A stretch of DNA of 45,169 nucleotides from NCBI GenBank assembly GCA_027315065.1, contig DAHUYT010000014.1:239-45407 (forward strand). Direction: 5' to 3'. Position 1 is the stretch's first letter, and every line of letters starts with the position of its first letter. The position numbers and the translations under genes were made by a program. The notes below the pieces were generated by a model, which searched no databases, had not been told where the DNA came from, and saw only the letters and a program-made list of their open reading frames with translations. This DNA is from Nitrososphaerota archaeon (GTDB taxonomy: Archaea; Thermoproteota; Nitrososphaeria; Nitrososphaerales; Nitrosopumilaceae). This document shows, piece by piece, positions 952 through 8,032 of this stretch.

Positions 952-1632
952 ATGGATATCCAGACGCCATCGATAACAGAGGCAAGAGACGGGCTAGCAT
1001 TTGCCCAGGCGCTGCCGCCAAAGATAGTATACAGCGTAAAAAATGACGCGGTTCCGATTGCCGGCTCGGAGCAGACTGCATACAGGAGGCTGCGCCTGCT
1101 AAGATCGCTTGGCCTTGCCAGTTTCAGAAACGGCCTTTTTAATATAAACAGGGAAGCGGCAATGCAGCCGCTCTTTGTAGTGGCAAAACTTTTTCCTTCA
1201 TTGATATCATTGAGACAAGCGCGACGGTTCGGCAAATTTTACAATGACTCTGACATCAGGTATGCCAGAAATTCAATGAGAGGTGCAATCGTAACTTTGG
1301 ACTTTGATGCGTGGGATCTCACAGGCTTCCAGACGCCGTCAGATCTGTACCTATACGTGGACGATGTAGCAAAGTCTGCCAAGCTGCTCAGAGACCGCGG
1401 CTTTAGCGAGGGAAGGAAGGGCCGCGTGGTACTTCTTCCAAAAAGAGGCGATTTTACAGACAAGGTAAACAGAACTTATCTTGACTGTATTGCAAGGGGT
1501 GGCAGGAGCATCTACGATGCAATAGCAATAGAGCTGCTATACCACGACAGGATACCGGTAAAGGGCAACTTTCCCGTTGAATATATTTTAAAGGTACAGC
1601 AGGAGATGGACCAAAGCAGGTTTAAGGATTGA
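952..1632 (+). CDS. AbiEi-like winged-helix antitoxin/autoregulator
   Basis: A 226-residue protein directly upstream of, and overlapping by 4 nt, a nucleotidyltransferase gene. The N-terminal third looks like a winged helix (IAGSEQTAYRRLRLLRSLGLASFRNGLFNINRE, seen as QTAYRRLRLLRSLGLASF then a basic wing). The rest is an uncharacterised alpha/beta region. Gene order, overlap and HTH content match type IV TA operons of the AbiE kind, where AbiEi represses the operon and neutralises the AbiEii toxin. The palindrome at 901-920 is the likely binding site. ATG 952 is supported by TATA spacing. Similarity to AbiEi is by architecture; I cannot align it to a specific family from memory. It could also be a plain transcriptional regulator of the second gene. 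Confidence 0.65.
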   Translation: MDIQTPSITEARDGLAFAQALPPKIVYSVKNDAVPIAGSEQTAYRRLRLLRSLGLASFRNGLFNINREAAMQPLFVVAKLFPSLISLRQARRFGKFYNDSDIRYARNSMRGAIVTLDFDAWDLTGFQTPSDLYLYVDDVAKSAKLLRDRGFSEGRKGRVVLLPKRGDFTDKVNRTYLDCIARGGRSIYDAIAIELLYHDRIPVKGNFPVEYILKVQQEMDQSRFKD

Positions 1633-2141
1633 AGCAGCTGGCGCGCGAGGCCCTTCTTGTCACACAGGACTTGGGCCGTGTCATTTTCATAGGAGCTATA
1701 GCAAGATATTTTCACACCAATGTATACAGAGAGTCCAAAGATCTGGACTTTGTCGTAGAAAAACCGGTCTCAAAAAAAGCATTAAACGATAAGGGGTACA
1801 ACCAATTTGAGAGAAACGGCAAGCTCGAATGGTTTTCTCCCCGAGGAATCAAGCTTGACATCTACTCAAGGGATGTAAGCGGCATTCCAGTCAGGAAAAT
1901 AATTGACACCGCGATAGAGTTTCCTGCAGGCAGGAGCAAGGAAAGGATACTGGTCATGAGTCTAGAGTCGCTCATAGTGGCAAAACACCGGGCTCAAAGG
2001 GCAGGCGATGTAGAGGATCTACACATCATAGCGAACACAAAGTCTAGGGATATACGGTGGGACCTTCTGAGGACCTTCACAAAAAGCAAGCACGAGTATG
2101 ATTCCATTAGGACCGCCATTGGATATTTGTCAAGAGCGTGA
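1629..2141 (+). CDS. AbiEii-like nucleotidyltransferase toxin
   Basis: A 170-residue nucleotidyltransferase-fold protein. The glycine-rich turn is FIGAIARYFHTN (20-31) and the metal-binding acidic pair is in ESKDLDFVVEK (D38, D40), the pattern of the AbiEii/DUF1814-like branch of the DNA polymerase beta superfamily. LESLIVAKHRAQRAGDVEDLHII near the C-terminus matches the conserved lysine/arginine plus D-x-x-D-L helix of this group. The family transfers nucleotides to RNA or protein targets and can arrest growth. Translation probably starts at the TTG at 1629, which overlaps the stop of the upstream gene (TTGA), consistent with translational coupling. It is shorter than classical AbiEii (about 300 residues), so this is a minimal version. 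Confidence 0.75.
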   Translation: MKQLAREALLVTQDLGRVIFIGAIARYFHTNVYRESKDLDFVVEKPVSKKALNDKGYNQFERNGKLEWFSPRGIKLDIYSRDVSGIPVRKIIDTAIEFPAGRSKERILVMSLESLIVAKHRAQRAGDVEDLHIIANTKSRDIRWDLLRTFTKSKHEYDSIRTAIGYLSRA

Positions 2142-2390
2142 TATCTTTACGGGTATGAATTTAGGTATCTAGGAAGAAAGGAAGAGAGGCTGTGCCTGAA
2201 AAAATTTATGAGATGAGGATAGAACAACTCGTATCAGCATCCTATACCGAAAAAACTGCATCAGGTTTGTCAAGAGACTGAGGCGTGAGAAGCAGCGCCT
2301 CGCTCACAATTCTCATCCCTGCCCCTCCCGCCAAACCGGAGACTGGTCATACTTCGAAAGGTTCTAGAATGATATGCATTTAGCAACCTC

Positions 2391-3560
2391 ATGAACATCC
2401 TGCTCCTAAGCCAGTTCTTCTCGACAACGAGGGGAGGCGGAGAGTACGTCTTCAGCGTGATGGCAAGAAAACTTGCGGAAAATGGCCACAGGGTTTTTGT
2501 CATCACAAACAAGATTGAGGGCGAAGACTATCAAGATATAGATAACATCAATGTAATCTTTGTACCTCCCGTATTACAATACAAGGGAGGGCTTCCCCCA
2601 AGGTTCTCAGACAACATTAGATATTCCATCAATACTATAAGAGTAGGCCTCAAAACAATAAAACAAGAAAAGATTGACATTATACACTCAAACAATTTTG
2701 CACCAGCCCTTACAGGTTCCATATTATCAAGCCTCACATCAAAGCCACACATCACAACAGTCCACGACATATTCTCGCTTTGCGGTAAAAACTATTGGAA
2801 AAAATGGGGGCAGCAAAGCGACGTATCAAGAATGAATATCTTGCTTGCTCCATTCTTTGAGAAACTGATGATAAAGCTACGATACGATTGCATACATACC
2901 GTAAGCGAGGCCACAAGGGATGACCTCCTAAAGTTTGGCGCAAAAAAACCCATACATGTAATCCACAATTCCATTGAATCAAATCAAGCAAGCAATGCAA
3001 CACCAAACCCCCTGCAGTTTGTATATGTTGGAAGGCTTGTCTTTTACAAGAACCTAGAAGTAGCAATAAAGGCAATAGATTTAGCAAGAAAGACAGAGCC
3101 TGAAATCAGGCTTGTAATAGTTGGAGACGGCCCCCACAGAAAGACCCTAGAGAACATGGTCAAAAAGCTAGGCTTGGAAAAAAACATCGAGTTCAAGGGA
3201 TATGTAACACCAGAGGAAAAATCAAAAATTATCGCAGAGTCAAGAGCGCTTGTATTTCCAAGCTTGTGCGAGGGCTTTGGACTTGTAATACTGGAATCAT
3301 ATGAACAGAAAAGGCCGGTACTGGTATCTGACATCAGGCCCATGTCTGATATTGTAACTCATGAAGGTAACGGCTTTGTCATAGATCCCCATGACGAGAA
3401 CCAGTGGGCAAAATACATTCTTAGTATGATAAAAAATCCCCAAGAGGCGTCTGCAATGGGTAATAATGGAAACAAGACGCTGACTGCATTGTACGGCCAG
3501 GAATCAATGTACCAAAAGGTTGTCAGGATGTACGATCTAGTACGGCAAAAAACTGGTTGA
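2391..3560 (+). CDS. Family 4 glycosyltransferase
   Basis: A 389-residue GT-B retaining glycosyltransferase, full length for the family. The N-terminal acceptor domain begins MNILLLSQFFSTTRGGGEYV, with the glycine-rich loop near residue 14. The C-terminal donor domain starts at about FVYVGRLVFYKNLEVAIKAI and contains LVIVGDGPHRKTLE and the EX7E motif in CEGFGLVILESYEQ, which binds the nucleotide-sugar. It acts at the inner membrane face on glycolipids, exopolysaccharide or S-layer glycans. It is monocistronic as far as seen; the ATG at 2391 begins a canonical Rossmann strand, so the start is secure. Donor and acceptor cannot be deduced. Confidence 0.93.
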   Translation: MNILLLSQFFSTTRGGGEYVFSVMARKLAENGHRVFVITNKIEGEDYQDIDNINVIFVPPVLQYKGGLPPRFSDNIRYSINTIRVGLKTIKQEKIDIIHSNNFAPALTGSILSSLTSKPHITTVHDIFSLCGKNYWKKWGQQSDVSRMNILLAPFFEKLMIKLRYDCIHTVSEATRDDLLKFGAKKPIHVIHNSIESNQASNATPNPLQFVYVGRLVFYKNLEVAIKAIDLARKTEPEIRLVIVGDGPHRKTLENMVKKLGLEKNIEFKGYVTPEEKSKIIAESRALVFPSLCEGFGLVILESYEQKRPVLVSDIRPMSDIVTHEGNGFVIDPHDENQWAKYILSMIKNPQEASAMGNNGNKTLTALYGQESMYQKVVRMYDLVRQKTG

Positions 3561-3648
3561 TTCACTCTGGTCTTCATCAGTGCACCGCCCACAAATTTTA
3601 CAAGAAATTTCACTATCAAGTTAACTTGGTCTTGACTTTGGCCAGTAT

Positions 3649-4002
3649 TTATTCTGCCCATAGTATAGAGTCTTGGGCATCGTTGGCATCCATCAGATCA
3701 GGCTGGTATTCCGAGGCATTCTTTTTGTCCATCAGATTGGTAAACTGTTTTCGCATGTCTTCATATTCCCTAGGAGAGAGTATTCCCTGAACAATCAAGA
3801 GTGATTCGTTGTGGTCATCTGATCCGCGTTTGCCTTTAAACGAACAGGTTAACGCATCAAGTGTACTTGTTCCACAATGGACCGCATTTGCCACTGTGCT
3901 GTTATACAAGTTATTTTTTAGCGAGCCTTTGGCTGTTTTGAGAAACTCCTCTGCTTTTATGATATAGTTCGGCCCTTTTGACGAGTCTACCGATCGTGCC
4001 AT
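3649..4002 (-). CDS. HEPN-domain protein, probable RNase toxin
   Basis: A 117-residue all-helical protein of the HEPN superfamily. Characteristic features are the helix IIKAEEFLKTAKGSLKNNLYNSTVANAVHCG, the STLDALT turn, and the RX4H catalytic motif KRGSDDH (R59, H64) found in HEPN ribonucleases. The tail (NLMDKKNASEYQPDLMDANDAQ) has the usual aromatic-Pro pattern of these proteins. Such proteins cut RNA and are usually paired with a nucleotidyltransferase. Here the gene before it on the same strand survives only as a fragment: its stop codon TAG directly abuts this ATG (4003-4005). The partner therefore seems lost or replaced by the adjoining inserted element. Confidence 0.8.
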   Translation of the reverse strand: MARSVDSSKGPNYIIKAEEFLKTAKGSLKNNLYNSTVANAVHCGTSTLDALTCSFKGKRGSDDHNESLLIVQGILSPREYEDMRKQFTNLMDKKNASEYQPDLMDANDAQDSILWAE

Positions 4003-4147
4003 CTATGAAACTCCTAACTTTTTGTCACATACTAGAATGTGGTTTTCAATGATTGACTGTACCAGAGATCGTCTGATATGTGCCATATTGTAGGCACGCT
4101 CTTCTTGTATTTTTTCACAATATAATGGAGAGTTCGTGATCAAGATC
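4003..4147 (-). pseudogene. C-terminal fragment of a gene cut by the inserted element
   Basis: Reading left from the 63-bp repeat, an open frame gives NSPLYCEKIQEERAYNM, then AHIRRSLVQSIIENHILV, then CDKKLGVS and a TAG that touches the HEPN start codon. The composition is protein-like and the frame stays open until it enters the direct repeat, where no start is available. I take it as the tail of the HEPN partner gene, truncated when the neighbouring element arrived. No family can be assigned from about 45 residues. Confidence 0.5.
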
Positions 4148-4191
4148 TGTTTCTATTCATAAAGTTAGGCAGAATTGTTAATTTTGGGATA
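4129..4191 (+). repeat. 63-bp direct repeat, left copy
   Basis: Identical over 63 bp to 5630-5692. It begins AGAGTTCGTGATCAAG and ends AATTTTGGGATA. Weaker similarity continues about 10 bp outward (CAATATAATG here, CAACATAATG in the right copy). It lies immediately upstream of the promoter of the gene at 4224. Confidence 0.95.
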
Positions 4192-4223
4192 GGCTCTAAA
4201 TAGCCAAATTGGTGGGAATTATT

Positions 4224-5216
4224 ATGGTTTCCTCATATGATCTCTTTACCGAAATTGTCAGGTGTGCTTTTCTAGGAGGAAACCAGATAATTGACTCCAG
4301 GACACACATGCTAGAGCCTACGTTGCTGAGGAAATACGATCTATTAAGAAAGTCGCCTGAATTTGGCTCAAAAACAGGTATGAATTATCTTTTTTCCAAT
4401 TTATCATCTGATTTTACAACAACTGCGAAAAGTGAACTTTACAGAAAAGCAGGAGGTTGGATAGACAAGAGTTACGATGAGAGAAAAGTCAAACAGTTCC
4501 AAATTGATAAAGATATTTTTCTTGTACCAATACTGAGTAAGCCTGCGGTTGGAATCGACACGAGTAGTAACGATGAGGATACTTTTGTCTGCTTTGCTTT
4601 TTTTGATAATTATAAAGCGGCATATCATTATTTTGAAAAGTTTCTAAAAATTCCAAAAACCAAAACCTCAAGACCAGAATTCAAGTGGAATAAACTCGGT
4701 CCAGAGTGTAGAGATCTATTAGATCAAAATCTAGAGTACATACTTGGTATGTCGTGCGAGTTTGTTCTAATCCTGAAAACCAACGCACTTAAGAAACCTG
4801 AAGAGAAACCTGTCGATATTTTCATAAAGCTTATTGAAGGATGTTTCTCTAACTACGAATACAAGTTAGAATCCCGCCTTAAATTAAGAAGTAAAATCTT
4901 CAAACTGTCTAATGACGTACCAATACATTGTGATGCAGATTTTTCACCCTTGACGCCAGATAAGATAGTCAAACAATTTGTGAAAATATTAGCATCTGAA
5001 AATGAGCATACACCGTTACACGCAGAAAAAGACTCACATGAATCAGAACCTATTCAAGTTACCGATATTCTCTGTGGCATATTAAAAGAGTGTATTCTGA
5101 ATAGAAAACGTGATAGTTTGGTTTCTTGGGAATTTCACAATAAACTAAAAAGCAAAACTAAAGAACGTCGTGCTAAGTGTTATTATTGGGAAAGAAGAGA
5201 GATTTCCTCAAGTTAA
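4224..5216 (+). CDS. Unknown protein of the inserted element
   Basis: A 330-residue soluble protein with no family I can name. The ATG at 4224 is preferred over a TTG at 4209 because the TATA-like CTAAATAG (about 4196-4203) sits some 25 bp upstream, fitting a leaderless transcript. Visible features are an acidic stretch GIDTSSNDEDTFVCFAFFDN near residue 115, a basic helical region, PIHCDADFSPLTPDKIVKQF near residue 235, and a strongly basic C-terminus (KLKSKTKERRAKCYYWERRE), which suggests nucleic-acid binding. The spaced acidic residues and length loosely recall DUF3800-type RNase-H-like proteins, a weak hypothesis only. It is A+T-rich compared with neighbours, which suggests transfer. It is the only gene in the element and lies just upstream of the structured tandem repeats. 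Confidence 0.6.
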   Translation: MVSSYDLFTEIVRCAFLGGNQIIDSRTHMLEPTLLRKYDLLRKSPEFGSKTGMNYLFSNLSSDFTTTAKSELYRKAGGWIDKSYDERKVKQFQIDKDIFLVPILSKPAVGIDTSSNDEDTFVCFAFFDNYKAAYHYFEKFLKIPKTKTSRPEFKWNKLGPECRDLLDQNLEYILGMSCEFVLILKTNALKKPEEKPVDIFIKLIEGCFSNYEYKLESRLKLRSKIFKLSNDVPIHCDADFSPLTPDKIVKQFVKILASENEHTPLHAEKDSHESEPIQVTDILCGILKECILNRKRDSLVSWEFHNKLKSKTKERRAKCYYWERREISSS

Positions 5217-5232
5217 ATTCAATTAGACAAAA

Positions 5233-5312
5233 AGGCGAGGTTTACCGTGTGTCTATTTGCGCAGACGTTACTGCCTATGGCAATCCCGTGACCTGCTGGG
5301 CAAACATCGCCT
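5233..5312. ncRNA. Structured repeat unit 1: conserved core in a paired stem
   Basis: A 59-bp core (5245-5303) identical to 5396-5454 sits inside an inverted repeat. The left arm AGGCGAGGTTTACC (5233-5246) pairs with the right arm GGCAAACATCGCCT (5299-5312) with two mismatches. Inside the core, GTCT/AGAC, TGCC-TAT-GGCA and GTTAC/GTGAC (with a wobble) can form further helices. The outer arm differs in sequence from unit 2 but pairs equally, the signature of a structure kept by selection. Strand and function are unknown; a transcribed RNA is more likely than a DNA cruciform, but both are possible. Confidence 0.5.
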
Positions 5313-5335
5313 GTTATACATATAGTAAAGATACG

Positions 5336-5367
5336 ATATAAACTAGTATCTGGTATTTTTTCCAGAT
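5336..5367. repeat. Unit 1 tail: shared 20-mer with ATCTGG/CCAGAT hairpin
   Basis: ATATAAACTAGTATCTGGTA (5336-5355) matches 5483-5502 at 19 of 20 positions. It runs into an inverted repeat ATCTGG (5348-5353) / CCAGAT (5362-5367) whose 8-nt loop is mostly T. It could be a TATA element with an operator, or a terminator-like hairpin closing unit 1. Confidence 0.5.
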
Positions 5368-5388
5368 CTTCATGAGAGAATGTGAAAA

Positions 5389-5458
5389 GCTGTTGCCGTG
5401 TGTCTATTTGCGCAGACGTTACTGCCTATGGCAATCCCGTGACCTGCTGGGCAACAGC
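5389..5458. ncRNA. Structured repeat unit 2: same core, different paired stem
   Basis: The core 5396-5454 is identical to unit 1 over 59 bp. Its closing stem is GCTGTTGCC (5389-5397) with GGCAACAGC (5450-5458), nine perfect pairs. Outside the innermost CC/GG pairs, the stem bases differ from unit 1 on both sides, so the change is compensatory. Unit spacing is 151 bp. The core does not match hammerhead, HDV, twister or cobalamin signatures that I know. Short peptides such as CVYLRRRYCLWQSRDLLGN can be read through the core in one frame, but the flanks do not keep a common frame. Confidence 0.5.
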
Positions 5459-5482
5459 CAGGTGTTCATACCTTGATGAAAC

Positions 5483-5515
5483 ATATAAAATAGTATCTGG
5501 TAGAACTACCAGATA
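5483..5515. repeat. Unit 2 tail: shared 20-mer with TATCTGGTA hairpin
   Basis: The counterpart of the unit 1 tail. Here the inverted repeat is longer and perfect: TATCTGGTA (5494-5502), loop GAAC, TACCAGATA (5507-5515). The loop and arm length differ from unit 1 while ATCTGG/CCAGAT is kept, again favouring a conserved hairpin or operator. Confidence 0.5.
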
Positions 5516-5629
5516 GAGAAATCCACTAGGCTGCATTCCAGAATAGAACTCCCATTTCTGGATTTATAGATTATTGTTCATCTCGCTTTCTTAAAAAGAT
5601 TGAATTCTAACAATTCAACATAATGACTA

Positions 5630-5692
5630 AGAGTTCGTGATCAAGATCTGTTTCTATTCATAAAGTTAGGCAGAATTGTTAATTTTGGGATA
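5630..5692 (+). repeat. 63-bp direct repeat, right copy
   Basis: Identical to 4129-4191. Its outer end (5692/5693) coincides with the point where the HEPN reading frame to the right loses similarity to its family, marking the element boundary. A perfect 7-bp hairpin (TTGAATT/AATTCAA, 5600-5618) lies just inside. Confidence 0.95.
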
Positions 5693-5798
5693 CAAGTCCA
5701 GTTTCTACTGCTCGAAATATCTCTTCTGCAGCAGGAAAAAGGCGCTTATTTTGAAAATTGTTCTGTGCAGACTGTAGATACTCTTCGGATTTCTTCAT
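5693..5798 (-). pseudogene. HEPN gene truncated by the inserted element
   Basis: From ATG 5798 the frame reads MKKSEEYLQSAQNNFQNKR and then LFPAAEEIFRAVETGL, the typical N-terminus of a HEPN protein that accompanies MNT nucleotidyltransferases. After residue 35 it enters the 63-bp repeat and stops within four codons. The start lies 7 nt past the stop of the nucleotidyltransferase frame (5806-5808), with a GGTGGAG ribosome-binding-like sequence. The pair once formed a HEPN/MNT operon; the HEPN half has now lost its catalytic region. Confidence 0.75.
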
Positions 5799-5805
5799 GC
5801 TCCAC

Positions 5806-6417
5806 CTAACTAAATCTTCTCGGCTTTTCACCATACAAAACCTCTCCGTTTGCATGAATCCCTATTATCAAAGGATCGTTTTCTAGTCTCTGCAAGTATT
5901 CTTTGACAGACATGACTATTGGATAAATCACAATACCATAACCTACGCTTATTTTCATGGTGACAAAGTCAAGAAGATCTTTTTTTATTACTTCATTGTT
6001 ATCTTGTGAAAGTACGAGTATGTCTATATCGCTTGGTTCCCTTACAATGTTGCTTCTCATCCTGCCTTTTGCCAGACTGCCAAACAGTATAACCGCTTTT
6101 ACCCTGTGATTTTTTACTGTGCGTCTGATCACCTTGCGTGCTATCTCTATGTAGACGCTTTTCAGGTCCTTAAACAGAGTCTTCAGAGATTTGTAAAGAA
6201 AATGACTACGGTTTATCTGATACACCTTAGCCTTGCCAACTCTGCATTGTAACTAATCCAGAGTTGACTAGATCCCCATCTGTCTGTTCATCTCCGAGAC
6301 CGAAGAGCCTGCATCTTTAGCCAGCTCCATCTCAAGAATTTTTCTGTCTGGCTTTTCGATTAACACCGATAAAGCATTAACCTTTGTTTTGTTGTCTAAT
6401 ATTCTATCCAAATACAT
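5806..6417 (-). pseudogene. wHTH-nucleotidyltransferase fusion with internal frame damage
   Basis: Two pieces in the same frame form one ancestral protein. The piece from ATG 6417 encodes the first half of a winged helix (MYLDRILDNKTKVNALSVL...MNRQM). The piece ending at 5806 encodes YQINRSHFLYKS and an MNT domain with GSLAKGRMRSN and PSDIDILV (metal Asp pair). Between them the shared frame holds two TAG codons (6268-6270 and about 6256). In a shifted frame the same bases read DLVNSGLVTMQ, exactly the missing recognition-helix/wing segment, followed by RVGKAKVYQINRS back in the original frame. Thus a one-base loss in a G run near 6274 and a one-base gain near 6245 offset each other. A 139-codon nucleotidyltransferase could still start at GTG 6225. 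Its HEPN partner is also broken. Confidence 0.75.
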
Positions 6418-6430
6418 TGTCAAACACTTT

Positions 6431-6466
6431 TTTCGGTTTTCCGAAATACATTTCTGTTTTCCGAAA
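6431..6466. promoter_or_regulatory. Tandem palindromic operators, 20-bp period
   Basis: TTTCGGTTTTCCGAAA (6431-6446) is an inverted repeat with 6-bp arms. A second copy, TTTCTGTTTTCCGAAA (6451-6466), differs by one base. Centres are 20 bp apart, about two DNA turns, so two dimers would bind the same face. They lie 13 bp upstream of the ATG of the wHTH-nucleotidyltransferase gene and probably mediate autoregulation. Confidence 0.65.
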
Positions 6467-6594
6467 ATAAATACAATCTGCTTCAAGGCCCTGCGTAAAA
6501 GGATTTGCCATGCAAGAACACACAAACACAATCTAGATGGGAGAACCAAGAGCAGACCAAAGTGTTCTCCAAGACATAAAGCGACTAGATAAGA

Positions 6595-6999
6595 TTAAAG
6601 ATCGCTAGTTTTCATGACCTTAACATAGTTTCTTGCTGCCCTCTCAAGTTCACGGTCGTCGGTTACCAGTACGAGGCCTAATTTTTCTGCAACTGTAAGA
6701 TAGGAGGCATCATAAGCGGTCAGTCCTTCTTTTGTAGCAAGCTCCTGCACACGTTTTTCCAGTCCTTTGATGTTAACTATATCCATGCGTTGTATCAAAA
6801 GCAGAATGGAATCAAGCAATACCGAGGATTGCTCTGCTGTGATCTTTTTTTCACGATATGAGAGTTTCCAGATGACATTTGATATTTCATAAAGAGTCAA
6901 GTCCAAGAGATGCTGCCTTTCCAGAATCCTTATCGATTGCGATTCCTTGTTTCTTACAACATTTAAAAGAGAACTTGCGTCAAAAAGCCTATCTTTCAT
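6595..6999 (-). CDS. vapC: VapC-type PIN-domain ribonuclease toxin
   Basis: A 134-residue PIN domain. The four acidic positions of the active site are visible: RLFDASSLLN (D7), YEISNVIWK (E38), TAYDASYL (D near 99) and LVTDDRELE (D near 117). PIN toxins bind Mg2+ and cut tRNA or rRNA. The ATG at 6999 lies inside the end of the vapB gene (11-nt overlap), so the two are translationally coupled. Length is normal for VapC. Confidence 0.88.
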   Translation of the reverse strand: MKDRLFDASSLLNVVRNKESQSIRILERQHLLDLTLYEISNVIWKLSYREKKITAEQSSVLLDSILLLIQRMDIVNIKGLEKRVQELATKEGLTAYDASYLTVAEKLGLVLVTDDRELERAARNYVKVMKTSDL

Positions 7000-7216
7000 T
7001 TCTTGAGGATCGTACTGCCTTTACAATCTCGTTGCTACTAACATTTTTCCGCAATACACGGCCTATCTTATCGAGATCCTTTGAAAGGCTTTCCTCCTCG
7101 ATTTTTCTTATCTCGTTTTCTATGGCTTTTCTTACAACCTCGCTTATCTTCAAGTGGTGCATCCTTGCTTTTTTTCTCAGCTCGTCTGATATCTTTGCCG
7201 AAACTACCGTGGTCAC
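6989..7216 (-). CDS. vapB: VapB-type antitoxin
   Basis: A 75-residue protein with an N-terminal ribbon-helix-helix-like segment (TTVVSAKISDELRKKARMHHLKISEVVRKAIENEI) and a charged C-terminal tail that would wrap the toxin. It starts at GTG 7216. A TATA box on the minus strand (CTTATATGG, 7238-7246) lies about 26 bp upstream, fitting a leaderless mRNA. It represses its own operon through the palindrome at 7218-7238, by analogy with the family. Confidence 0.82.
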   Translation of the reverse strand: MTTVVSAKISDELRKKARMHHLKISEVVRKAIENEIRKIEEESLSKDLDKIGRVLRKNVSSNEIVKAVRSSRNER

Positions 7217-7217
7217 A

Positions 7218-7246
7218 GTATTACTTTAGTGGTAATACCATATAAG
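7218..7246. promoter_or_regulatory. Operator between TATA box and start of first vapBC
   Basis: GTATTAC (7218-7224) and GTAATAC (7232-7238) form a perfect inverted repeat with a 7-bp spacer, lying between the minus-strand TATA box (7238-7246) and the GTG start at 7216. A VapB dimer or tetramer bound here would block initiation. Confidence 0.65.
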
Positions 7247-7350
7247 TATTATTTAGACAAATTCAAGTTATTAGTATTGATATAGTATTCTCTTTACTAT
7301 GGGATGATACAATTTCTGGAAAATATACGAAAAAAATTGTCAATTATGTT

Positions 7351-7761
7351 TTAGACCACATAGTCCTTCAGATGTACTGCATTTTGTGCTACCTCAAAGA
7401 GTCTTCGGTCAGCTGTAAGCAGCGGTATTTTACGCATCGCTGATATCTGTACATACACAGCATCATAGTATGTAACACCGATATCTCTTGCCAGCTTCAT
7501 TGACTGACTGGCAGCTTCAGAATCAAGTGTTACTAGTTCTATCTCTATCGCAAGAAAAGACTCTACTGCTTTTATGCTATCACCAAGGTCTAGACTCTTG
7601 TTCTTCCATACAGAGTTTCCAACCTCATACAGAATATGTTGTGGTGCACAAAGATCTATCTTTCCACCTAAAAATGCGTCCCTTACTCTTACTGCCTTGT
7701 CTGTGAAATCCTCATTTGAAAACCATTTTACAGCAACGCTTGCATCTAGAACAAATCTCAA
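7351..7761 (-). CDS. vapC: VapC-type PIN-domain ribonuclease toxin
   Basis: A 136-residue PIN domain with MRFVLDASVAVKWF (D6), HILYEVGNSVWK (E46), VTYYDAVYVQ (D about 99) and LLTADRRLFE (D about 117). It starts at TTG 7761, overlapping the vapB stop by 4 nt (TTGA). It is only distantly similar to the PIN protein at 6595-6999, so the two VapBC pairs are not a recent tandem duplication. Upstream 7217-7350 is an A+T-rich intergenic stretch. Confidence 0.88.
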   Translation of the reverse strand: MRFVLDASVAVKWFSNEDFTDKAVRVRDAFLGGKIDLCAPQHILYEVGNSVWKNKSLDLGDSIKAVESFLAIEIELVTLDSEAASQSMKLARDIGVTYYDAVYVQISAMRKIPLLTADRRLFEVAQNAVHLKDYVV

Positions 7762-7979
7762 GTATCACGGTCCTCTCTGACAGAGGTAGCAGCATCAAAG
7801 CCACCATACTTTGTCTTTGCCCTTATCTCATCCATGGAATGTGCTGCCTTTCTTTGCCTCTCCTCGCTTATCCTACGTCTTATGGTATCACGTATGTATT
7901 GGGACCAGTCAATATCGATCTTTTTCATGTCTTCTTTTATCTCCTTACTTATCCTAACGCTGAGGCTTGAGCTGTTCAT
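7758..7979 (-). CDS. vapB: VapB-type ribbon-helix-helix antitoxin
   Basis: A 73-residue antitoxin: MNSSSLSVRISKEIKEDM gives the DNA-binding strand and first helix, DWSQYIRDTIRRRISEERQ the second helix, and the tail ends GGFDAATSVREDRDT. ATG 7979 is preferred over an in-frame ATG at 7997 because the MNSSSLSVRIS start matches the family and the upstream codons (CNTYY) do not. It partners the adjoining VapC. Confidence 0.8.
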   Translation of the reverse strand: MNSSSLSVRISKEIKEDMKKIDIDWSQYIRDTIRRRISEERQRKAAHSMDEIRAKTKYGGFDAATSVREDRDT

Positions 7980-7984
7980 ATAAT

Positions 7985-8032
7985 ATGTATTACACATCAG
8001 TATTCATAAATGTATTGCATTTATGTATTACA
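7985..8032. promoter_or_regulatory. Operator region of second vapBC
   Basis: CATAAATG (8005-8012) and CATTTATG (8018-8025) form a perfect inverted repeat with a 5-bp spacer. Three direct copies of ATGTATT start at 7985, 8010 and 8023, and TGTATTACA occurs at 7986-7994 and 8024-8032. This dense array lies over the likely promoter of the vapB gene starting at 7979. Confidence 0.55.

What the first reader, a model, noticed from the sequence alone, without database searches (positions are those of the whole stretch)
4129..5692. Compact element with 63-bp direct repeats, one unknown gene and tandem structured repeats
Identical 63-bp repeats bound a 1.56-kb segment, and genes on both sides are broken at or near its edges: a HEPN gene truncated at 5693 and a C-terminal gene fragment at 4003-4147. 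Inside are a 330-residue protein without visible transposase motifs and a repeat-rich non-coding tail. This looks like a mobile or mobilisable cassette of unknown kind. A 63-bp duplication is too long for a normal target-site duplication, so the repeats are more likely att-like ends or recombination substrates.
Basis: partly seen in the sequence, partly recalled or inferred. Interest (0 to 1): 0.82.

Follow-up and report, generated by a model that had tools for sequence, protein, structure and literature searches.

The report
Archaeal nuclease-like gene with partner RNA
A small, patchily distributed archaeal module pairs a gene for a probable nuclease (a divergent DUF3800 protein) with a new conserved structured RNA encoded just downstream; orphan copies of the RNA, one of them in a virus, suggest a protein-RNA defence or toxin-antitoxin system, while the 63-bp repeats that drew attention are only fragments of an insertion sequence.

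Summary
The repeats and the open reading frame are real, but the interpretation changes. The 63-bp repeats (4129-4191, 5630-5692) are end fragments of an IS5-type insertion sequence. The left copy runs on into a transposase N-terminus that truncates the nucleotidyltransferase partner of an intact HEPN gene. No homologous module outside this genome carries these repeats.

The conserved unit is 4224-5513: a 330-aa divergent DUF3800-like protein followed by a new ~140-nt structured RNA, present twice here (5234-5366, 5392-5513). The same pair occurs in all 13 loci found with this protein, in Nitrososphaeria and in MAGs labelled Bathyarchaeota and Euryarchaeota (35-89% protein identity). A covariance model built without the window's genus finds the window copies; a genus-only alignment independently gives the same fold with compensatory changes. 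The RNA matches no Rfam family.

The unit is patchy and mobile: in one relative it lies in a 2.1-kb element with 36-bp inverted repeats and an 8-bp target duplication, and more than 30 congeners have the empty site. Intact RNA also persists where the protein is decayed or absent, often beside toxin-antitoxin genes, and once in a virus.

Best reading: a mobile nuclease held in check by its cognate RNA. Anatomy firm (~0.9); mechanism inferred (~0.45).

The parts
4224..5216 (+). Gene for a divergent DUF3800-like protein (330 aa). Residues invariant in all 8 aligned homologues include G110-I111-D112, E152-x-K154-W155, I234-H235-C236-D237-x-D239-F240 and P276-I277-Q278-xx-D281; an RNase H-like acidic site is inferred.
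   Evidence: Pfam DUF3800 hit in all 8 homologues, best E 1.1e-4; window 19.4 bits, cut-off 21; PADLOC candidate PDC-M04A in 8 of 8, window E 4.1e-5; alignment A4
5234..5366 (+). Structured RNA, copy 1: outer stem P1, inner stem, apical hairpin, variable linker, UAUAAA-like motif and 3' hairpin
   Evidence: R1, a model built without the window's genus, 57.9 bits, E 6.5e-9; R2 95.2 bits; covariation
5392..5513 (+). Structured RNA, copy 2; core 98% identical to copy 1, different but still pairing P1
   Evidence: R1 57.1 bits, E 9.4e-9; R2 93.6 bits; repeat D2
4071..4200 (-). Remnant of an IS5-type insertion sequence: outer terminus (GAGCCTATCCC.., outer end near 4198) and transposase N-terminus KKYKKSVPTIWHISDDLW; contains the left 63-bp repeat 4129-4191
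   Evidence: Similarity to IS ends in L039/L047/L051/L054 and L002; DUF4096 and DDE transposase in L002
5630..5692 (-). Right 63-bp repeat: fragment of the same IS end, cut on both sides
4003..4070 (-). C-terminal remnant (~22 codons) of the HTH-nucleotidyltransferase partner of the HEPN gene at 3649-4002; context, not part of the module
   Evidence: Intact gene pair in congeners L027-L030, L032, L034, L037
3649..4002 (-). Intact HEPN gene; context
   Evidence: Pfam HEPN E 3.8e-4
5694..5834 (-). N-terminal remnant (47 codons) of a second HEPN-like gene; context
   Evidence: inferred from its place after a nucleotidyltransferase gene, not tested against Pfam
5806..6225 (-). Nucleotidyltransferase gene (MNT type) of the second pair; context
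   Evidence: Polbeta E 3.1e-8

Best explanation
The segment holds a two-component protein-RNA module: a divergent DUF3800 protein, expected to have an RNase H-like nuclease fold, and a ~140-nt structured RNA encoded directly downstream and here tandemly duplicated. Shown here: the strict linkage, the conserved RNA fold, the patchy distribution, the mobility in one relative, and the survival of the RNA alone. Inferred: the protein is a nuclease toxin or defence effector, and the RNA binds it and keeps it inactive, in the manner of a protein-RNA toxin-antitoxin pair. Loss of the RNA supply, for instance on infection, would release the nuclease. Orphan RNAs in genomes without the protein, and the viral copy, would then act as antidotes or decoys. 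The flanking 63-bp repeats are unrelated insertion-sequence debris that may have helped bring the module in and may allow its loss by recombination.
For: The RNA follows the gene within about 0-45 nt of the stop, or overlaps its end, in 13 of 13 loci with the protein. The fold is supported by covariation: 18 of 28 pairs with changes on both sides against 10.3 in shuffles, and covariation score 0.278 against at most 0.066 when slid; a genus-only unguided alignment gives the same structure, 9 of 20 pairs with double changes. R1 finds the window copies although they were not used to build it. Tandem copies share species-specific core bases while their P1 stems differ and still pair. Others predict from AlphaFold2 that DUF3800 has an RNase H fold, and note its association with ncRNAs (PMC10910872). 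Mobility: element with 36-bp TIRs and 8-bp duplication in L010, empty site in more than 30 congeners. RNA kept while the gene is decayed or absent; TA genes close to 5 orphan RNAs; viral copy with rebuilt P1 and no DUF3800 gene in the part held.
Against: The window protein lies just below Pfam's cut-off, so the nuclease fold is inferred. The RNA lies downstream of the gene, not upstream as in known type III systems (arrangement from memory). Orphan RNAs near TA genes may only reflect TA-rich islands; no background rate was measured. There is one viral example, and 10 of its 25 kb were not seen. Single-sequence folding is not always better than shuffled sequence (z from 0.2 to -2.6).
Confidence: 0.45

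Rival explanations
1. RNA-guided or RNA-dependent nuclease comparable to TnpB/OMEGA: the downstream RNA is a scaffold, and a variable stretch (linker or 3' flank) guides an RNase H-fold nuclease to DNA or RNA.
For: RNase H-like protein (inferred) with a structured RNA at its 3' end, an arrangement like the omega RNA of TnpB; a variable 30-50-nt linker lies between conserved parts; mobile.
Against: The RNA persists intact in genomes with no DUF3800 hit at all and in a virus, where a guide scaffold would be useless unless used in trans. Conserved parts flank the variable linker on both sides. No RuvC, OrfB or Cas family hit.
Confidence: 0.2
2. The RNA is a cis-acting 3'-UTR element (stability, processing or autoregulation of the DUF3800 mRNA), not a partner acting in trans.
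For: It always lies directly after the gene on the same strand, and one copy can overlap the gene's end (L012).
Against: Intact orphan copies without the gene, a viral copy, tandem duplication, and a copy upstream of the gene in L012.
Confidence: 0.15
3. The conserved RNA-like sequence is a DNA structure: the end or recombination site of a transposon whose DUF3800-like protein is the recombinase; orphans are non-autonomous copies.
For: Inferred RNase H-like fold, terminal hairpins, orphans and tandem copies, up to seven matches in one genome (G282).
Against: Covariation runs through several nested stems with G-U pairs tolerated, typical of RNA. No matching second end. The only insertion with resolved borders (L010) has unrelated TIRs far outside the unit. 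Copy number is usually one locus per genome.
Confidence: 0.12
4. One reading: a cassette bounded by att-like 63-bp repeats that integrates by site-specific recombination.
For: Perfect direct repeats bound the unit.
Against: The repeats are insertion-sequence ends found as multicopy termini elsewhere; homologous modules lack them; no integrase in the segment.
Confidence: 0.03

Closest known systems
DUF3800-associated RNA motifs in Rfam (e.g. DUF3800-I RF02969, DUF3800-IX RF02968) and their DUF3800 genes
   Same: A structured RNA encoded beside a DUF3800-family gene; function unknown.
   Different: This RNA matches no Rfam model at E up to 10; its protein is a divergent archaeal subfamily. Canonical DUF3800 loci in the same genomes lack the RNA in the stretches searched. 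Tandem copies, orphans and a viral copy are described here; whether the known motifs have them was not checked.
Type III toxin-antitoxin systems (ToxIN, TenpIN, CptIN)
   Same: Works like, if the inference holds: a nuclease with a structured, tandemly repeated RNA partner; mobile; phage RNA mimics are known for ToxIN (PMC3475682, listed).
   Different: No ToxN-type toxin hit; RNA downstream of the gene rather than upstream; repeats of about 150 nt, two or three copies rather than longer arrays of short repeats (type III arrangement from memory).
TnpB/OMEGA (IS200/IS605, IS607) RNA-guided nucleases
   Same: Structured RNA at the 3' end of a gene for an (inferred) RNase H-fold protein; moved by mobile elements.
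   Different: No TnpB, RuvC or OrfB hit, no IS200/605 partner, a conserved 3' hairpin instead of a 3' guide, and RNA surviving without the protein.
TPR-DUF3800 accessory proteins of Cas12a2 loci (PMC10910872, PMC12669027)
   Same: DUF3800 domain predicted to have an RNase H fold, linked to RNA biology.
   Different: No Cas gene or CRISPR array was noticed at these loci (not searched systematically); no TPR domain hit here.

Membership tests
Pfam PF12686 (DUF3800) | Score above the curated cut-off (21 bits) | tested here: not met
   Window protein 19.4 bits, E 0.0018; all 8 homologues hit, best E 1.1e-4. Called a divergent relative, not a formal member.
Pfam PF12686 (DUF3800) | RNase H-like fold with conserved acidic residues | tested here: inconclusive
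   D112, E152, D237, D239 and D281 invariant in 8 homologues; no usable model
Rfam DUF3800 RNA motifs | Match to one of the Rfam covariance models | tested here: not met
   No hit at E up to 10 for the window or L017; none at gathering score in 12 loci except a tRNA
Rfam DUF3800 RNA motifs | Conserved structured RNA beside a DUF3800-type gene | tested here: met
   13 of 13 loci with the protein; covariation
Type III toxin-antitoxin | Toxin of the ToxN/TenpN/CptN type | tested here: not met
   Only DUF3800 consistently in Pfam and PDC-M04A in PADLOC
Type III toxin-antitoxin | Repeated RNA antitoxin upstream of the toxin gene | tested here: not met
   RNA repeated one to three times, but downstream
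Type III toxin-antitoxin | RNA neutralises a toxic nuclease by direct binding | not testable with these tools
   Needs expression and binding assays
TnpB/OMEGA | RuvC-type TnpB/OrfB protein | tested here: not met
   No Pfam hit
TnpB/OMEGA | Structured RNA overlapping or following the 3' end of the gene | tested here: met
   13 of 13 loci
Integrase- or att-bounded cassette | Same repeats bound homologous units; integrase or site-specific recombinase | tested here: not met
   Repeats only at this genome's locus and IS-derived
Insertion sequence IS5 type (origin of the 63-bp repeats) | Terminal sequence next to a DUF4096/DDE transposase start | tested here: met
   L002 and L047 arrangements; DUF4096 E 1.2e-24 and DDE_Tnp_1 E 4.9e-8 for L002; the window copy keeps only the end

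The most novel reading that the evidence does not exclude
A new class of archaeal protein-RNA immune or addiction system: an RNase H-fold DUF3800 effector controlled by a dedicated structured RNA, spread by insertion elements, and countered by archaeal viruses that carry a mimic of that RNA.
Probability: 0.3. Interest if true: 0.87.

Novelty: new variant of a known kind. Interest (0 to 1): 0.62.

Why it matters
DUF3800 proteins have been reported beside unexplained RNAs and as CRISPR accessories, yet no function is settled. This archaeal pair is small (1.3 kb), has a well-defined RNA fold, and offers natural experiments: orphan RNAs, decayed genes, a viral copy and an insertion with empty sites. 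Together these make the question 'what does the RNA do for the protein?' directly testable in two simple expression constructs. If the viral copy is a decoy, it would be an RNA counter-defence in a probable archaeal virus.

Tried and rejected
att-like 63-bp repeats: rejected (IS ends). The fragment at 4003-4147 as a HEPN C-terminus: rejected. Known Rfam family: none. Solved-structure relative: none convincing. Protein relatives in viral contigs and plasmids, and RNA in the phage collection: none. A second RNA pattern modelled on the window's genus found nothing in viral contigs. hhalign against canonical DUF3800 proteins: uninformative; two of the six template proteins were wrongly chosen open frames. 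An embedded promoter for the RNA in the last codons of the gene (TATTTTTGG about 25 nt before the RNA, also kept in orphans) is suggestive only. TIRs for L009, next to an IS240/IS66-like transposase: none clear. TIR copies elsewhere in the genus: none.

Full report
Observation. The window lies in an archaeal genome (1.74 Mb, 86 contigs); the closest named relatives of the module are Thaumarchaeota/Nitrosotalea MAGs. The 63-bp direct repeats at 4129-4191 and 5630-5692 are identical. The segment between them holds one open frame of 330-335 residues and, after it, two 62-nt repeats 151 nt apart that are 98% alike.

The repeats are insertion-sequence debris. A search of 101 genomes with 4120-4210 found the same sequence as multicopy termini in other genomes of the order, the outermost ~25 bases (TTGTTAATTTTGGGATAGGCTC) being identical in many. 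In L047 and in the genome's own L002 this terminus sits directly before a transposase start, MKKNKKSMPTIWHIP.. and MVKQKKKRMPTIWYIPDDMW..; the L002 frames hit DUF4096 (E 1.2e-24) and DDE_Tnp_1 (E 4.9e-8). In the window the left repeat runs on in the same way into KKYKKSVPTIWHISDDLW and then breaks into the last ~22 codons of a nucleotidyltransferase. In at least seven congeners that gene is whole and forms a pair with the HEPN gene. The right repeat is a 63-bp piece of the same IS end, abutting the first 47 codons of another HEPN-like gene whose nucleotidyltransferase partner follows. How the right piece arose (recombination or template switching) is open.

What is conserved is the unit inside. 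Against the nearest homologue (L004/L008, 89% protein identity) DNA similarity covers only 4197-5520, without the 63-bp repeats. Protein relatives occur in 5 of 151 relatives, 7 of 398 genomes of the phylum (both counts include the window's own genome and, partial proteins) and seven contigs of the GTDB set, including MAGs labelled Bathyarchaeota and Euryarchaeota. Every one of the eight aligned homologues hits DUF3800 weakly (best E 1.1e-4; the window protein is 1.6 bits under the cut-off), and all hit a PADLOC defence candidate, PDC-M04A. Invariant residues include D112, E152, H235, D237, D239, Q278 and D281, compatible with the RNase H-type fold that others predict for DUF3800 (PMC10910872). 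No usable structure model could be made.

The RNA. Directly after the stop codon in every locus with the protein lies a conserved ~140-nt sequence. A covariance model (R1) built from eight sequences outside the window's genus finds both window copies (57.9 and 57.1 bits, E about 1e-8) and one to three copies at each locus. On the resulting alignment 90.3% of cells pair, 18 of 28 pairs have changes on both sides (shuffles 10.3, sd 1.6) and the covariation score is 0.278 (shuffles 0.130; slid partners at most 0.066). That alignment leans to the model. Independently, an unguided alignment of the eleven copies from the window's close relatives gives the same outer stem, inner stem and hairpin, with nine of twenty pairs doubly changed. 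Anatomy: outer stem P1, highly variable in sequence but pairing; loop GUUA or GUGUG..; stem GCRG/CYGC; ACG/CGU; an apical stem of up to 6 bp closed by UCU/UAU; then a variable linker ending in a UUAUAAA-like motif and a hairpin UCUGG..CCAGA. Within one species the tandem copies share species-specific core bases while their P1 stems differ, as expected from concerted evolution of the core or selection on it. Thermodynamic z-scores of single sequences are modest (0.2 to -2.6); the case rests on covariation. Rfam has no match, and canonical DUF3800 loci in the same genomes lack the RNA in the stretches searched.

Mobility. In L010 the module sits in a 2095-bp element with perfect 36-bp inverted repeats and an 8-bp duplication (ATTTCTAA), without a transposase, single copy in the genome. 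More than 30 congeners have the uninterrupted junction. In L009 an IS240/IS66-like transposase gene follows. Different vehicles in different genomes suggest cargo rather than a self-moving element (inference).

Orphans. A phylum search with R1 found intact RNA in genomes where the protein is absent or decayed. G264, G306 and G454 contain no DUF3800 gene detectable by Pfam. Several orphans keep only the last 10-60 codons of the gene, so the gene was lost and the RNA stayed. Genes close to five orphans are TA components: ParE with DUF2683, PIN with MazE, PIN, AbiEii, and MazE near HicB; the background rate was not measured. One viral contig (L081, with terminase, Mom-like and Cas4-like genes) carries the RNA core (61.1 bits with R2) with a rebuilt outer stem (GAGGG/CCCUC) and no DUF3800 gene in the 14.8 of 24.9 kb held.

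Mechanism. Shown: linkage, RNA fold, mobility in one relative, survival of the RNA alone. Inferred: the protein is a nuclease; the RNA binds it; binding restrains it. The persistence of RNA without protein is the main argument for an antitoxin or decoy role over a guide role. ToxIN gives a precedent for both RNA antitoxins and phage RNA mimicry (PMC3475682, PMC8860590, abstracts), but this module fails two defining features of type III systems (toxin family, RNA upstream) and is not filed there. The DUF3800 RNA motifs of Weinberg and co-workers (known to me from memory; paper not held; two of them named in the Rfam 15 paper) are the nearest precedent in kind; the present RNA and protein subfamily are a new archaeal variant.

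Limits.

Noticed in passing
L010 3613-5707 (G030:C2): 2095-bp non-autonomous element with perfect 36-bp inverted repeats and 8-bp target duplication, inserted at the 3' end of a PfkB-type kinase gene (by reading of the translation); more than 30 congeners have the empty site. It also carries a small RHH-like gene shared with L009.
   Followed up: yes
L081 4904-4975 (IMGVR_UViG_3300021469_000007): Viral contig with an orphan copy of the RNA core, structure kept through compensatory change.
   Followed up: partly
window 952-7997: Toxin-antitoxin-rich stretch: an AbiEii-type gene with an upstream partner frame (952-2141), two HEPN/nucleotidyltransferase systems (one lacking most of the transferase, one truncated in HEPN), a PIN protein with an antitoxin-like gene (6595-7216) and a further PIN-like pair read from the translations (7351-7997).
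   Followed up: partly
L018 571-742 and 2841-3015; L077 709-1185: A/C-rich ~175-bp direct repeats on both sides of the module in G282, also beside an orphan RNA pair in the same genome; nature unknown.
   Followed up: partly
upstream of RNA copies, e.g. L018 2482-2510, L064, L070, L078: TATTTTTGG-like sequence about 25 nt before the RNA, inside the last codons (AYFW) of the gene and retained in orphans that lost the rest of the gene; possible TATA box of the RNA embedded in the coding region.
   Followed up: partly
L086 (G000:C40:9448-9981): A second DUF3800 gene in the window's own genome, over Pfam's cut-off in the whole-genome search, without the RNA.
   Followed up: no
L012 3836-3964 and 4964-5108: Bathyarchaeota-labelled locus with an RNA copy upstream of the gene as well as one overlapping the gene's end, so the gene is bracketed by RNA copies.
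   Followed up: no
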